Shown in pieces: positions 4,447 to 28,747 of a stretch of DNA of 37,476 nucleotides. This DNA comes from Sulfurimonas sp. (GTDB lineage: Bacteria; Campylobacterota; Campylobacteria; Campylobacterales; Sulfurimonadaceae), in assembly GCA_002899765.1 (NCBI GenBank), contig PPDH01000040.1, forward strand, positions 1 through 37,476, in the 5' to 3' direction. The notes under the pieces are model-generated. The model did no database searches. It saw only the letters and a list, made by a program, of their open reading frames with translations, and was not told where the DNA came from. The translations under genes were made by a program, and so were the position numbers. The number at the start of each line of letters is the position of its first letter. Positions within the stretch are counted from its first letter, which is position 1.

Positions 4447-5685
4447 ATGCAAGTAAAAAACAGATTAACCCCGTTTTTTGAAAATATCACTTTTGATAGA
4501 GAAGACAATGAGATGATTTTAAACTTCGGTCCTCAGCATCCTTCAGCTCACGGACAGTTACGTTTAATGCTTCACCTTCAGCAAGAGATGATAGTAAAAG
4601 CACATCCCGACATCGGTTATCTTCACCGCGGTATGGAGAAGATGGCTGAAAATATGATTTATAATGAGTTCATGCCGACAACCGACCGTATGGATTATAT
4701 TGCATCATCTGCAAATAACTACGGTTTTGCTCTGGCGGTTGAGAGACTGATAGGTCTTGAAGTACCTCGCCGTGCAAAAGTTATCCGTATGATGCTTTTA
4801 GAGATAAACCGTCTAATGTCTCACCTGTTTTGGTTGGCAACAACTGCTCTTGATATCGGTGCTATGACTGTTTTTCTTTTTGCTTTCCGAGAGAGAGAGT
4901 ATCTGATGGACATCATCGAGGGATACTGCGGAGCGAGACTTACCCACGCGGCTATCCGTATCGGCGGGGTTCCTTTGGATATTCAAGATAGTTTTATTGC
5001 TCAGTTAAGAACATTTTTAGACAAGCTTCCTCAAAATATCAAAGATTACGAAGACCTTCTTGATACTAACCGTATCTGGCTTATGAGAATGGAAGAGGTT
5101 GGAACTATCTCAAAAGAGATGGCACTTTCATGGGGTTGCTCAGGTCCTATGCTTAGAGCGTCAGGCGTTGCTTGGGATATCCGTAAAGAGGAGCCGTATG
5201 AGCTTTACGATGAAGTAGAATTCAGAGTTCCTTACTCGGACAAAGGCGACAACTTTGCAAGATATAGAATGTACATGGAAGAGATGAGAGAGTCTGCAAA
5301 GATTCTTTATCAGACAATCGACATGTATGAGAAATGCGTAAAAGAGGGACAAACTGAACTTATGGCACATGCGCCGAAATACGTATCAGCTCCAAAACTT
5401 GATATCATGACTCAGAACTACTCTTTGATGCAGCATTTCGTTCTTGTGACACAAGGTATGAGACCTCCTGTGGGCGAAGTTTATGTCGCAACGGAATCTC
5501 CAAAAGGTGAGCTTGGCTTCTTTATCAACTCTCAAGGCGGACCGTATCCTTATAGACTTAAACTTAGTGCACCGTCATTCTGGCACACGGGGATTTTAAC
5601 CGACCTTCTGCCGGGTCACTATATTCCGGATGTAGTTTCGATTATAGGAACGACAAATATCGTATTTGGAGAGGTTGACCGCTAA
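4447..5685 (+). CDS. nuoD: NADH-quinone oxidoreductase subunit D
   Basis: This 412-aa subunit (49-kDa type) forms the quinone-binding pocket together with NuoB. The diagnostic motif [15 protein letters not shown] contains the quinone-site His, followed by [12 protein letters not shown] and PTTDRMDY. The start ATG 4447 lies behind AGGGAG. Its stop overlaps the ATG of the next gene by one base. The length is typical for a non-fused NuoD. Confidence 0.97.
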
Positions 5686-22726: not shown

Positions 22727-23100
22727 ATGAATGAACAAGAGAAAAATGAACCGGTCGTAAATTGTGACCGATTCCAAAAACTTAAACACTCTTTATCTTT
22801 ACCATTTGCTTTTGCTTTTACGAAACAATGAAAAATATATGCAATAAACAGATGTGCTCATATACAACCTATTCCATTTTGGAACAATTAAAACTCTACA
22901 TAGAAAAATACAACGCCCAGTACAAAAACCTAGAGGCAAAAGAGTTTAACAGCTCTCATGACAGGTTTTTGATACTCGATGAAAAAGAGATTTACCACAT
23001 AGGAGCAAGCCTAAAAGACCTTGGTAAAAAGTGGTTTGTGTTTTCACTTTTGGAAGTGGAGAGTTTTGGGTTGATGGAGAGAGTTTGTAGGGTAGTTTAG
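22727..23100 (+). pseudogene. Decayed ORF6N-domain gene, internally deleted
   Basis: Two fragments in different frames correspond to two parts of one ORF6N/KilA-N-type protein. 22727-22831 encodes MNEQEKNEPVVNCDRFQKLK and LPFAFAFTKQ, the end of the ORF6N domain, which in intact members reads like NCDRFxKLKHS...PYAFTEQG. GCTTTT is duplicated and the Gly codon has become TGA. 22828-23100 (90 codons) encodes the C-terminal part with HDRFLILDEKEIYHIGASLKDLGKKW. The middle is missing. ORF6N proteins are DNA-binding, phage-antirepressor-like proteins often found with mobile genes. No function is expected from the remnant. Confidence 0.7.
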
Positions 23101-23106: not shown

Positions 23107-23139
23107 GTGCTAATACAGTTACTAAAACAAAGGGAAAAC

Positions 23140-24345
23140 ATGAAAGATAAAATATTTTTAAGTACAAAAAATAAAGTAATAGAGATTAAAGAAGATGAGT
23201 TGAGAATTAACAATGTTCTATTAAAAGATAAACAAGGTGAACAAACTATTGAATATAAATTATCTGATGATATGAATGAAGAAAACTTGACAAATAAAGC
23301 CTTAGAACTAGCCCAAAACTCCTATATAAAATTCCTTGAGAAATTGGTATCTGCTGAAAAACTACTTGTTTTAACTGGTGCTGGTAGTTCAAAAGATGAT
23401 GAATTATTTGGTGGAAAATTAATGTGGGAGTTATGGGATGCTGTTTCTTCGTTAAATTATCAAGGTTTTTCTTTTGAAATGATGTTAAACATACTAAAAA
23501 TTAGTCCCGAAACTAAAGACAAAAAAGATTTAGAAACAATATTATCAAAAGCTAAATTGTATTTAGAATTTAATGATGATGCTGTTGGAATGGAAGGTTT
23601 AGTTGAATCAATCGAAAAAAATATTTTAACTTTATGTAACTTTTCATTAAAAGACAAATCCATACATTTAGAATTTATAAAAAAACTCACAAGTCGAAAA
23701 ACAAAACAATCAAGATTAAAAATATTTACAACCAACTATGATAGGGCATTTGAAGAAGCTGGAGCAGAAGGTGGATATGTAATAATTGATGGGTTTTCAT
23801 TTACTCAGCCAAGAAAATTTAGTGGTAAATATTTTGATTATGATATTGTTATTAGAGAAAATAGTCGTACTTCCTCTACTGAAAACTTTGCTAATAATGT
23901 ATTTCACTTGTATAAACTACACGGTTCAGTAAATTGGGAAAAACAAAGAAATGATATTATTCAAGTAGATAAACCATCAAAAGCTATGATGATATATCCA
24001 AACAGCAACAAATATGAATCATCTTATGAACAGCCTTATTTTGAAATGATGAGCAGATTTCAAAGTGAACTAAGAAAAGGTGGAACTACTACTTTGATAG
24101 TTGTAGGATTTAGTTTTGCTGATAAACATATTTTTACAATGACTATTGAAGCTTTAAATCAAAATCCAAGTTTAAATATTGTGATGATAGAACCGTTTAT
24201 TAATCCTGATGTGAATGAAAACTTCAAAAAGCTGTTTGAGTTATCCAAAAGAAGTAGTCAAGTGTTAATCATAGGTGAATTTTTTAAAGATTTTATAACT
24301 AACTTGCCATCTAGTCAATATTTAGACTTTAATGGAGATAAATAA
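23140..24345 (+). CDS. SIR2-family NADase-type protein, SIR2 component of SIR2-HerA
   Basis: The product is 401 aa, starting at ATG 23140 behind AAAGGGAAA; an ATG 11 codons upstream has no ribosome binding site. The SIR2 fold is shown by LTGAGSS (residues ~78-84), TTNYD (197-201, the Asn/Asp of the NAD site), LHGS with catalytic-type His 261, and GFSFADKHI near the end. There is no zinc-binding Cys set, unlike protein deacylases, which fits the defence-type SIR2_2 group that degrades NAD+ on phage infection. An N-terminal ~60-residue domain precedes it. Its stop touches the HerA start (TAATG), so the two are co-translated. Together with HerA it matches SIR2-HerA antiphage systems. Confidence 0.8.
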   Translation: MKDKIFLSTKNKVIEIKEDELRINNVLLKDKQGEQTIEYKLSDDMNEENLTNKALELAQNSYIKFLEKLVSAEKLLVLTGAGSSKDDELFGGKLMWELWDAVSSLNYQGFSFEMMLNILKISPETKDKKDLETILSKAKLYLEFNDDAVGMEGLVESIEKNILTLCNFSLKDKSIHLEFIKKLTSRKTKQSRLKIFTTNYDRAFEEAGAEGGYVIIDGFSFTQPRKFSGKYFDYDIVIRENSRTSSTENFANNVFHLYKLHGSVNWEKQRNDIIQVDKPSKAMMIYPNSNKYESSYEQPYFEMMSRFQSELRKGGTTTLIVVGFSFADKHIFTMTIEALNQNPSLNIVMIEPFINPDVNENFKKLFELSKRSSQVLIIGEFFKDFITNLPSSQYLDFNGDK

Positions 24346-26027
24346 TGAAAAAACACATCTTTGTCAATGATAAATTTGTAGGTTATATATCAAAAGTTAC
24401 GCCAAATTATTCAAACATTCATTTTCCAACGCCTACGCTCTTGAAAAAGTTTTGGCATTATGAAGATGAATTATCTGGTGGTATTGTTGGCAATTATGTT
24501 ATAATTGAAGGTGAAAATTTTGGTTTTTTAGGAAAACTACAAGAAGTGTCTTTACCTGAAAAAGAACAAAATTTTTTAGGTGAACATGCTTTTTATGATT
24601 CTAGTTTTCATCCGCAAGGTAAAATAGAATTATTATTATCATTTAATTATTATTCTACAAAAATAGATAAAGGACTTGATAAATATCCTGCCGTTGGTTC
24701 TAAAGTATATTTATGTTCAGCAGATTTAATAAAAACATTATTTGTAAGTGACAACTCTAGTGGTAGTGTATCTTTTGATATAGCCAAACTTACTAATGGT
24801 CTGGAAACTGACCTTCCATTAAATCCTAATCAACTTTTTGGGCGACATTGTGCGATTGTTGGCACTACTGGAGGAGGCAAAAGCTATACCATATCAAGGA
24901 TACTTGAAGAGTTTTTGCATCTAAATAAATCAAAAGCGATTTTAATAGATGCAACTGGTGAGTATTAAAACTTTTATGATTTAGAGAATGTAAAAACTGT
25001 AAAGTTCGGTGCAAATGATGAAGATACATTTTTTCACTATTCAAGACTTCGAACTATGGACTTGGTAGCTTTGTTTAAACCAAGTGAAGGTGTTCAAAAA
25101 CCAAAGCTAATAGATGCAATTAAAAGTTTAAAACTTGTTAAACAGTTACAAATACATGAAAATTATGGACAAAATATTTTTCCTAAAGAAAATCAACCGA
25201 AAAGTAGTTACTTTACTAAAATAGGAACATATAGAGATATTATTGAATCTGATAAAAGTGATTTTAATTTATCTAATTTAACACAACAGATTAATGAGGA
25301 ATGTATAAAACATGGTGATTCTAATAATTTTGGCACATCCGATGGCACTGCTATTGCAAATATTCGCTCATTGATTAGTAGAATTGAACATTTAAGATTA
25401 CAACCAGAATTTAAAAATATCTTTGGGTTTAATAAACAATTAGGTGACAACAATGAATTTAATCAAGAATTAGAAAACTTTTTAGATGCAGCACAAACAG
25501 AACAAACATTATTTATTATCTCTTTAAAAGACGCTTCTTTTGAAAAGGGTTTGAGAGAAATTTTAACGAATGCAATTGGCAACTATTTACTTGAAGAAGC
25601 AAGACAATATAAATTTAAAGAAAATCCAATAGTTTTATTTGTTGATGAGGCACACCAATTTCTAAAAAAAACAATTTCTGACGATTCTTTTCAAGATTTG
25701 GAACTTGATGCTTTTGATAAGATTGCCAAAGAATGTAGAAAACATGGACTATTTTTATGTATATCAACTCAAACACCAAGAGATATTCCTGTAGGAACTT
25801 TAAGCCAAATTGGTACTTTCATAGTTCATAGACTTATAAATGAAACAGATAGAAGTGTAATAGAAAAAGCTTGTTCAGAAGGCAATAAAAGCTCATTATC
25901 ATATTTACCTACTTTACAATCAGGAGAAGCACTTTTAATAAGTATTGAAATGCCAATGCCAATTATTATTAAGATTAAAGAGCCTAATATTAAACCTACA
26001 TCACTTACATCAAAATTATTTGTTTAA
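24345..26027 (+). pseudogene. herA: HerA-type ATPase, interrupted by in-frame TAA
   Basis: This frame of 560 residues carries a single TAA at 24966-24968 (residue 208), just after the conserved IDATGEY that follows Walker A. Walker A GTTGGGKS is at ~173-180. Walker B VDEAH at ~433-437 lies beyond the stop, so the truncated product cannot be an active ATPase. STQTPRDIPVGTLSQ and the RLINETDRSVIEKA region are typical of HerA hexamers. HerA forms a ring that assembles with SIR2. The next ATG (25056) lies 90 bp on and inside conserved sequence, so a separate second protein would lack a proper start. The base composition is very AT-rich. Confidence 0.8.
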
Positions 26028-26040
26028 GGAGTTAATAGTA

Positions 26041-26883
26041 ATGGATTTTGCGATATGTACAATAGATAACAAAAAATATAAAGCTCATGAGTTTCAAAAA
26101 TTAGACGCGTCAGAACTGGCAAATAAAAGAAGATTTTTACAATGTCAATGTGGAGGTTCAGCTTTTTTTAGAAAAGCATCAGCAAGCGGTCAGGCAGCAT
26201 GCTTTGGCGCAAGACCTCATAAAGAAGGATGTGATTTTGCTGCTCAAGAAAGTGAAACTGTTAATGGTACTCTATCTGAAGATGAAAAAGAATATTTTAA
26301 TTCGGGAAAAGAATTAATTTTAGATTTAAACTTTGGAACTCAAAATACAAAACATGTAAGTGATACGGATGAGAATGATATAGATGATAAAAGTAAAGCA
26401 GGGCACCATTCTTCAAAGAATGGGAAAGCTACTGCAAAATCACATAGACGATTAAGCACAATATTAAGAACTTTAATGATAGATGAAAATTATTTTAATA
26501 ATTCAAATTTAAAAATTGAGTTAGAAGGATATTCGTATTTGTCTAAAAATTTATTTAAAAACTTCAATAAATTAACAAATGAATATGTTGATGATATTTT
26601 AAATAATAGACCTAACACAAGAAGAGCAATTTGGGGCATGGTCTCAGATGCTCAGTATGATAAAAAAAATATAGAAAGTATATGGATAAATACAGGTGGT
26701 AATAACACAGTAAGTATATTAATTGATGAAAAGGTATCAAATTCTTTTATGGAAAGATTTAAAATAAGAGAGTTAGAAGATTTGTCTGGCAGATATGTAT
26801 TGGCAATTGGTAAATTGAAAAAATCTAAGAATAATAAAATTTTTTCAGTAGTTGAAAATATATCTTATGTGTCAATTGTTTAG
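26041..26883 (+). CDS. Unknown Cys-rich protein, third gene of the SIR2-HerA locus
   Basis: This 280-aa protein starts at ATG 26041 behind AAGGAG, 13 bp after herA, in the same AT-rich composition and so probably the same operon. The N-terminal region has a likely metal-binding set: C35 and C37 (CQCGG), C54, H60 and C64 (ARPHKEGC). The segment FFRKASASGQAACFGARPH is strikingly dense in conserved-looking residues. A polar linker follows. The C-terminal ~70 residues (WINTGGNNTVSILIDEK to GRYVLAIGKLKKSKNNK) could form a small beta-barrel such as an OB fold; this is only a guess from the strand pattern. I do not recognise the family. A substrate sensor, nuclease-like or DNA-binding partner of SIR2-HerA is possible. 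Confidence 0.75.
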   Translation: MDFAICTIDNKKYKAHEFQKLDASELANKRRFLQCQCGGSAFFRKASASGQAACFGARPHKEGCDFAAQESETVNGTLSEDEKEYFNSGKELILDLNFGTQNTKHVSDTDENDIDDKSKAGHHSSKNGKATAKSHRRLSTILRTLMIDENYFNNSNLKIELEGYSYLSKNLFKNFNKLTNEYVDDILNNRPNTRRAIWGMVSDAQYDKKNIESIWINTGGNNTVSILIDEKVSNSFMERFKIRELEDLSGRYVLAIGKLKKSKNNKIFSVVENISYVSIV

Positions 26884-27024
26884 TATGACTTCCTTAAATC
26901 ACTTTATAATTTTTAGATAAAAAAAAATTTTCAAGTCTTGGATATTTACATGTAAGTTAAATTCTAGATAGTATAGAACAAAAAATTAAAATAAAATACT
27001 CTCTCTAAAAAAGGCAAAAAGAAG

Positions 27025-28017
27025 ATGAACTCACAATCAAACATCCTCATCTACAAAACCGAAGATGGGCAAACAAAAATACAAACACGGCTCGAAGGTG
27101 AGACGGTTTGGCTTACTATTGAACAAATGGCAGAGCTTTTTCAAAAAAGCCGTTCAACAATCAATGAACATATTTTAAACATTTATAAAGAAGCTGAGCT
27201 TGAAAAAGATGAGAGCATGAGAAAAATCGGAAATTCCGATTTTTCTACAAAGCCTACAAACTTCTACAACCTCGATGTTATCATCTCCGTAGGCTATAGA
27301 GTCAAATCGCTTCAAGGTACAAAATTTAGACAATGGGCAACGGCACGGCTCAAAGAGTACATCGTCAAAGGTTTTACTATGAATGATGAACTCTTAAAAC
27401 AAGCAGGCGGCGGAAACTATTTTGAAGAACTTTTAGAACGTATTCGAGATATACGAAGCAGTGAAAAAGTATTTTGGAGAAAGGTGCTAGACATCTATGC
27501 CACGAGTATAGACTACGACCCAAAGGCGGAGAGTTCTATGCTCTTTTTTCAAACAGTGCAGAACAAAATGCACTGGGCAGTTCATGGTAACACGGCAGCG
27601 GAGATAGTTTATAAAAGAGCAGACGGCACAAAACCAAATATGGGACTTACCAACTTTAAAGGCAGCAAACCAACAAAACAAGAAGCCGAGATAGCCAAAA
27701 ACTATCTGAATGTTGATGAACTAACTCTTTTAAATCGTATGGTAACGGCATATATCGAGATAGCAGAGATTCAAGCGATGAGTAAAACACCGATGTACAT
27801 GAAAGACTGGATAGCAAGACTGGATGATTTTTTGAAAATGACAGGAAAAGATATACTCGCTCACGCAGGCACAATCAGTCATGAAAAGGCGATAGAAAAG
27901 GTAAATAAAGAGTACATGTCATACAAAGAAAAAACAAAAAATGAACTCTCACATGTAGAAGAAGATTTTATCGAGTATTTAGACTCTGCGGCGAAAGCGT
28001 TAAAAATTAAGGATTGA
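27025..28017 (+). CDS. RhuM-family (virulence RhuM-like) protein
   Basis: The 330-aa protein begins at ATG 27025 behind AAAAGGC. The N-terminal winged-helix-like region reads EGETVWLTIEQMAELFQKSRSTINEHILNI, followed by FYNLDVIISVGYRVKS and FRQWATARLKEYIVKGF, the standard RhuM/BRO-like signature. The C-terminal ~170 residues are the helical part of the same family. RhuM proteins are widespread near pathogenicity and defence islands, and their molecular role is uncertain. The gene appears complete. The 141-bp gap before it holds only a possible -10 (TAAAAT, 26992). It is 13 bp from the sirtuin gene and may be co-transcribed with it. Confidence 0.85.
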   Translation: MNSQSNILIYKTEDGQTKIQTRLEGETVWLTIEQMAELFQKSRSTINEHILNIYKEAELEKDESMRKIGNSDFSTKPTNFYNLDVIISVGYRVKSLQGTKFRQWATARLKEYIVKGFTMNDELLKQAGGGNYFEELLERIRDIRSSEKVFWRKVLDIYATSIDYDPKAESSMLFFQTVQNKMHWAVHGNTAAEIVYKRADGTKPNMGLTNFKGSKPTKQEAEIAKNYLNVDELTLLNRMVTAYIEIAEIQAMSKTPMYMKDWIARLDDFLKMTGKDILAHAGTISHEKAIEKVNKEYMSYKEKTKNELSHVEEDFIEYLDSAAKALKIKD

Positions 28018-28030
28018 CGGAGAAAAGCAG

Positions 28031-28747
28031 ATGGCAAAAGTTTTGATTTTAAGCGGTGCGGGCATAAGTGCGGAGTCTGGCATAAGTACATTTAGAGACA
28101 GTGGCGGTCTTTGGGATGAGTACGATGTAAGCGTTATCTGCAACTACGACAGCATGCAAAAGCACGAAGAGCTAACCATAGAGTTTTACGACAAAAGACG
28201 CTCGGAGTTGGAGACAAAAGAGCCAAATTATGCTCACAAAAGAGTAGCCGAACTAAAGAACATGTACAAAAAAGAGATAGCGGTTATTACTCAAAATGTG
28301 GACAATCTTTTTGAAAAAGCGGGACTTGATAGCAGTGAGGTTATTCATCTGCACGGTTTTTTAACCCAGCTTAGATGTCAAGACTCATATTGCGGGAAAG
28401 TTTTTGACGTAGGTTATAAAAGCCAAAAAGAGTTTAACGGCGGAAGATGTCTTACATGTAACTCAAAACTTAGACCTAACATCGTCTTTTTCGGCGAGCA
28501 GGCACCCATGTATGAGGAGCTAAACAGACATATTCAGGATTGTGAACTCTTCGTCGTCATCGGCACAAGCGGCAATGTCATAGGGGTAAATACAATGGCG
28601 CAGTTTGCTACAAGGTCGATTTTGAACAACTATGAGTCTAGCAGTGCCATAGATGATGCCTACTTCTCAAAAGTGTTCTACAAAAAAGCGACCGAAGCCG
28701 TTGATGAGATATCGCAGGAGATAGAGAGTTTTTTAAAATTGCACTGA
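28031..28747 (+). CDS. cobB: NAD-dependent protein deacylase (sirtuin, CobB-like)
   Basis: This 238-aa sirtuin removes acyl groups from lysine using NAD+, giving nicotinamide and O-acyl-ADP-ribose. It shows GAGISAESGISTFR (~8-21), TQNVDNL, the catalytic His in HLHGFL and a zinc ribbon with four Cys (LRCQDSYC and RCLTC). It also has the YxxR pair in FYDKRRSEL, which in class III sirtuins such as E. coli CobB and SIRT5 allows desuccinylation. The C-terminus ends with a helix typical of the class. The start ATG 28031 has GGAGAA upstream. It is probably a housekeeping gene, distinct from the defence-type SIR2 at 23140. Confidence 0.9.
   Translation: MAKVLILSGAGISAESGISTFRDSGGLWDEYDVSVICNYDSMQKHEELTIEFYDKRRSELETKEPNYAHKRVAELKNMYKKEIAVITQNVDNLFEKAGLDSSEVIHLHGFLTQLRCQDSYCGKVFDVGYKSQKEFNGGRCLTCNSKLRPNIVFFGEQAPMYEELNRHIQDCELFVVIGTSGNVIGVNTMAQFATRSILNNYESSSAIDDAYFSKVFYKKATEAVDEISQEIESFLKLH

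What the first reader, a model, noticed from the sequence alone, without database searches (positions are those of the whole stretch)
23140..26883. SIR2-HerA defence locus with a third, undescribed partner gene
The SIR2-HerA pair is a known antiphage type. Here a 280-aa Cys/His-rich protein follows herA by 13 bp with a strong ribosome binding site and the same very AT-rich composition (sampled lines ~15-25% GC against ~40% in nuo). This points to a three-gene system. The third protein could sense a phage signal or bind nucleic acid.
Basis: partly seen in the sequence, partly recalled or inferred. Interest (0 to 1): 0.7.

Follow-up and report, generated by a model that had tools for sequence, protein, structure and literature searches.

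The report
SIR2-HerA defence genes, optional third gene
This is a known type of bacterial anti-virus gene pair (SIR2-HerA), carrying a passenger or helper gene from an undescribed family that mostly lives elsewhere on plasmids and prophages; in this genome the herA gene is interrupted by a stop codon, so this copy is probably dead or misread.

Summary
The three genes exist at the stated coordinates on one strand: SIR2 23140-24345, herA 24345-26027, third gene 26041-26883. Their GC content is about 28%, against 40% in nuo. The nonsense is recent or an assembly error.

SIR2-HerA is a divergent member of the Nezha/SIR2-HerA NADase system. The third gene belongs to an undescribed family with no Pfam, NCBIfam, PHROG or PADLOC match. 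It has a conserved C/C/H/C zinc-type motif and a predicted C-terminal OB-fold.

It does travel with SIR2-HerA here. The same operon with the same tight junction occurs in two other genomes (83% and 53% identity), and the closer pair shows purifying selection (dN/dS 0.11).

But most homologues lie elsewhere. Of 21 loci examined, 18 had no SIR2 or herA in the stretch held. They sit beside other defence genes, in a type I RM operon, on conjugative plasmids and in prophage contigs. Conversely, four close SIR2-HerA relatives and all plasmid ones lack the gene.

An optional, co-inherited accessory in one Campylobacterota subclade remains possible.

The parts
23140..24345 (+). SIR2-type NADase-like protein of the SIR2-HerA system, 401 aa; motifs TGAGSS (79), TNYD (198), LHGS (260)
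   Evidence: PF13289 E 3.5e-14; PADLOC SIR2 E 9e-90; aligned to solved SIR2-HerA chains 8j4u, 8yhx, 8w9l
24345..26027 (+). herA-type ATPase, 560-codon frame with Walker A GTTGGGKS (173) and Walker B LFVDEAH (431), interrupted by an in-frame TAA at 24966-24968
   Evidence: intact in L005, L039, L033, L034
26041..26883 (+). third gene, 280 aa: N-terminal C35/C37...H60...C64 zinc-type motif, C-terminal OB-fold (predicted)
   Evidence: (no family hit)
26022..26040 (+). herA-third junction: Shine-Dalgarno TAAGGAG overlapping the herA stop, 13-bp gap
   Evidence: sequence and comparison with L005 and L039
26884..26906 (+). end of the segment shared with L039; resembles the first bases of the DUF2779-domain gene that follows the third gene in L039 (remnant, inferred)
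   Evidence: (DNA match ends 26906)
22828..23100 (+). remnant of the C-terminal end of a RhuM-type protein, also found (degraded) just before SIR2 in L039
   Evidence: (PDC-S05 E 4e-25)

Best explanation
This is a horizontally moving SIR2-HerA (Nezha-type) defence pair of a Campylobacterota subclade. A gene from an independent, mobile family of zinc-motif/OB-fold proteins joined it downstream of herA and has since been inherited with it as one operon. The core would work as in known SIR2-HerA systems: HerA hexamers assemble with SIR2, and infection triggers NAD+ destruction (inferred from homology). The third protein is most likely an optional nucleic-acid-binding accessory that works on its own or in several defence settings, not an obligate subunit (inferred from its distribution and predicted fold). 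The window copy of the core is probably inactive, because herA has a stop between Walker A and Walker B, unless that stop is an assembly error.
For: Same three genes and junction in L005 (SIR2 83%, HerA 95%, third 83% aa; DNA 86% over 23123-26900) and L039 (82/93/53%). Third gene under purifying selection (window/L005 dN/dS 0.11, dS 0.80, equal to SIR2's dS 0.79). Core without the third gene: L033, L034, L064, L065, seven plasmid loci L042-L048 and L035-L038. Third family away from SIR2-HerA: L006, L007, L052, plasmids L008-L014, viral contigs L080-L095. Structure model pLDDT 72.6, pTM 0.72; residues ~137-280 match OB-folds of LysRS, RPA, Stn1, Teb1, MCM10 (VIA Z up to 7.7, rmsd 3.4, 102 aligned; Foldseek E from 3.7e-5). 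HerA is required for immunity in V. cholerae Nezha (PMC11559045).
Against: The operon is tight and conserved in three loci, which also fits a functional partner. The OB-fold match (Z under 8) shows only a fold class and no function. The HerA tree supports one acquisition only moderately (75/81) and the SIR2 tree does not resolve it. The family survey is limited to the collections held, and some viral loci are short.
Confidence: 0.6

Rival explanations
1. A true three-component variant: in this subclade the zinc/OB protein is a dedicated sensor or regulator, for example recruiting phage ssDNA to HerA or restraining SIR2 until infection.
For: Conserved 13-16 bp junction and likely translational coupling in three loci in at least two sequence contexts; matched dS and purifying selection; predicted OB-fold; the trigger of SIR2-HerA is listed as unclear in a 2025 review (PMC12198126).
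Against: Near relatives (HerA 85-89% identical) have the pair alone (L033, L034), so the core does not need it; most of the family is not next to SIR2-HerA.
Confidence: 0.23
2. Unrelated hitchhiker: the third gene is an independent cargo gene (its own defence, or a plasmid/prophage maintenance function) that merely sits in the same mobile segment.
For: Lone occurrence on conjugative plasmids, at prophage ends beside integrases, and beside other defence genes; faster divergence in L039 (53% identity, dN/dS 0.33) than its SIR2 and HerA.
Against: Retained without intervening genes and with the same junction in three loci; purifying selection.
Confidence: 0.17

Closest known systems
SIR2-HerA / Nezha anti-phage system
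   Same: SIR2 gene followed by overlapping herA; PADLOC SIR2 and HerA models; sequence match to solved SIR2-HerA chains (8j4u/8su9, 8yhx/8yho, 8w9l/8wld) and conserved TNYD and LHGS motifs.
   Different: Far below NCBIfam equivalog cut-offs (SIR2_antiphage 112.5 of 500 bits; HerA_antiphage 112.7 of 800 for the longer fragment); an extra downstream gene in three loci; herA interrupted in this copy.
OB-fold nucleic-acid-binding domains (LysRS anticodon-binding OB, RPA, Stn1, Teb1, MCM10)
   Same: Predicted fold of third protein residues ~137-280.
   Different: No sequence relationship (best profile hit to PDB E 0.1); the N-terminal zinc-type motif and linker have no assigned fold; binding is not shown.
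HerA-DUF4297 and other HerA two-component systems
   Same: HerA-type ATPase paired with an effector gene.
   Different: The effector here is a SIR2-like protein, not DUF4297.

Membership tests
SIR2-HerA (Nezha) | SIR2-type gene directly upstream of herA, same strand | tested here: met
   23140-24345 and 24345-26027, overlapping ends
SIR2-HerA (Nezha) | Conserved NADase motifs (Asn of TNYD, His of LHGS) | tested here: met
   TNYD at 198, LHGS at 260, aligned with solved SIR2 chains
SIR2-HerA (Nezha) | HerA with Walker A and Walker B in one intact reading frame | tested here: not met
   Motifs present, but TAA at codon 208 splits the frame; intact in L005, L039, L033, L034
SIR2-HerA (Nezha) | Curated equivalog score (NCBIfam NF042942, NF042943) | tested here: not met
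   112.5 of 500 bits (SIR2) and 112.7 of 800 bits (longer HerA fragment, so lowered by the split); it is a divergent sub-branch
SIR2-HerA (Nezha) | Phage defence by NAD+ depletion | not testable with these tools
   needs phage and NAD assays
Third gene as an obligate SIR2-HerA component | Homologues lie next to SIR2-HerA | tested here: not met
   3 of 21 loci examined
Third gene as an obligate SIR2-HerA component | Close SIR2-HerA pairs carry it | tested here: not met
   Present in window, L005, L039; absent in L033, L034, L064, L065; L040 contig ends too early
OB-fold nucleic-acid-binding proteins | OB-fold in a confident model | tested here: inconclusive
   pLDDT about 77-92 over the C-terminal half; best Z 7.7, below 8

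The most novel reading that the evidence does not exclude
A SIR2-HerA variant in which a dedicated zinc-motif/OB-fold protein senses phage ssDNA or RNA and gates HerA/SIR2. The same adaptor family would serve other defence systems (type I RM, ThiF-DUF6791, PHP-SMC loci) as a general infection sensor.
Probability: 0.12. Interest if true: 0.75.

Novelty: new variant of a known kind. Interest (0 to 1): 0.36.

Why it matters
What activates SIR2-HerA is listed as unclear in a 2025 review (PMC12198126), so a naturally paired, optional nucleic-acid-binding candidate gives a testable handle. The third family itself has no entry in Pfam, NCBIfam, PHROGs or PADLOC, yet it recurs in defence islands, conjugative plasmids and prophages across phyla. 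It is therefore a reasonable candidate for a new accessory defence family.

Tried and rejected
Family libraries for the third protein: nothing significant. PDB sequence profile: nothing. No match among 50,697 deposited phage records or E. coli genomes (DNA query only). I considered an sbcCD-SIR2-HerA functional operon because sbcC precedes SIR2 in L005, L064 and L039. sbcCD occurs in other genomes of the genus without SIR2-HerA and in varying contexts, so I treat it as a shared insertion site. I tested whether the herA stop reflects a generally error-prone assembly: 3 of 97 ABC/response-regulator domain hits in G000 carry an in-frame TAA. The comparison genomes' list was cut before the weak hits, so this is inconclusive. 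herA substitutions before and after the stop show no clear relaxed constraint, so the stop is recent or an error.

Full report
Observation. The window holds SIR2 (23140-24345, 401 aa), herA (24345-26027) and a 280-aa ORF (26041-26883) in one direction with tight junctions. The ribosome-binding sequence of the third gene overlaps the herA stop. Lineage-specific herA changes remain mostly synonymous on both sides of the stop, so the nonsense is recent or an assembly error. The same assembly shows in-frame TAA codons in 3 of 97 conserved-domain hits and a frameshifted sbcD; a comparison with other genomes was inconclusive.

What the core is. SIR2 matches PF13289 and PADLOC SIR2 (E 9e-90), and HerA matches PADLOC HerA PDLC04103. 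By sequence they match solved SIR2-HerA structures. The active-site motifs TNYD and LHGS are kept. Scores are far below the NCBIfam equivalog cut-offs, so this is a divergent branch. In V. cholerae the equivalent pair (Nezha) depletes NAD+, and deleting herA removes immunity (PMC11559045). By that standard the window copy would be inactive if the stop is real.

The third gene. No Pfam, NCBIfam, PHROG or PADLOC family matches it, nor does any PDB sequence. Homologues were found by tblastn in plasmids, by whole-genome search, by a herA scan and by a DNA pattern for the ACFGARPH signature in viral contigs. Across 13 diverse members, C35, C37, H60, C64, W215, N217 and G250 are invariant. The model built from ten natural sequences has a well-predicted C-terminal half. 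It matches OB-folds of tRNA synthetases, RPA, Stn1, Teb1 and MCM10. The Z-scores (7.7 at best) support a fold class only; nucleic-acid binding is inference.

Does it belong to SIR2-HerA? Evidence for: L005 (another genus of the family) and L039 (a Campylobacterota MAG contig) carry the same three genes with 13-16 bp between herA and the third gene. DNA similarity runs across all three genes (window 23123-26900 against L005, 22954-26906 against L039). dN/dS of the third gene is 0.11 for window/L005, with dS equal to SIR2's, so it is a maintained, co-inherited gene. The three third genes form one group (support 89/89); the HerA tree agrees weakly (75/81) and the SIR2 tree is unresolved.

Evidence against an obligate role: the close relatives L033, L034, L065 and L064 have SIR2-HerA without it (L064's herA is truncated). 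In L034 the next gene is rpsL. All seven plasmid SIR2-HerA loci examined lack it. Of 21 third-gene loci with neighbourhoods examined, only three have SIR2-HerA. The other 18 are: an insert inside a type I RM operon next to a Schlafen/AlbA gene (L052); next to DUF2130 and a PHP-SMC-like ATPase (L006) and next to ThiF-DUF6791 and DUF6527 (L007); plasmid records, several of them conjugative, some near replication or umuDC genes; and viral contigs, several beside an integrase and one next to an FRG-domain gene. In the genomes of its own order the family is rare (4 of 399).

Interpretation. The best-supported reading is a two-gene defence core plus an optional, co-inherited accessory from a mobile zinc-motif/OB-fold family that also associates with other defence loci. 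A dedicated sensor role in this subclade is possible but untested. In L039 the third gene is followed by a DUF2779 gene and a helicase, and the window and L005 keep only what looks like the first bases of that gene, so the segment was probably once longer (inference). It lies downstream of a conserved TPR-type gene whose downstream neighbours vary between relatives.

Limits. Viral loci are short and partly cut; the genome collections were sampled; no complex prediction or experiment was possible; the source genome's reads are not available.

Noticed in passing
Recent pseudogene or assembly error.
   Followed up: partly
window 22828-23100 and 27025-28017: Remnant of a RhuM-type C-terminus just before SIR2 (also degraded in L039 at 4567-4735) and a full RhuM gene (PADLOC PDC-S05) just after the third gene: the SIR2-HerA segment is bracketed by RhuM sequences.
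   Followed up: partly
window 28031-28747: A second, ordinary CobB-like sirtuin deacylase gene right after rhuM, unrelated to the defence SIR2.
   Followed up: no
L005 12393-15867, L064 4268-7742, L039 1071-4545: sbcD-sbcC (Mre11-Rad50 type) lies directly upstream of SIR2-HerA in three genomes, about 20 bp from sbcC to SIR2 in two of them; a shared insertion site or a functional link.
   Followed up: partly
L075 10054-11171 (G000:C2): sbcD of the window's own genome is split by a frameshift.
   Followed up: no
L039 8535-11766; window 26884-26906: In L039 a DUF2779 gene and a DEAD-box helicase follow the third gene; the window and L005 keep only what looks like the first bases of the DUF2779 gene.
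   Followed up: partly
L033 (G383) whole locus: SIR2-HerA lies in an integron-like array with repeated attC-like elements; a 307-aa gene there (1684-2607) has a similar Cys/His plus beta-rich layout but no family match.
   Followed up: no
L064 8965-9774: HerA truncated to 269 aa and followed by Mu-like prophage genes: a second damaged SIR2-HerA in the genus.
   Followed up: no
G000 C4:183049-183492, C6:35398-35727, C28:35245-35574: In-frame TAA codons inside conserved domains of the window's genome assembly; possible elevated error or decay rate.
   Followed up: partly
L039 (CAMCYD010000047.1): The record is titled as a Helicobacter pylori PMSS1 MAG but carries sbcCD and SIR2-HerA close to those of the window's family; the title is probably misassigned.
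   Followed up: no
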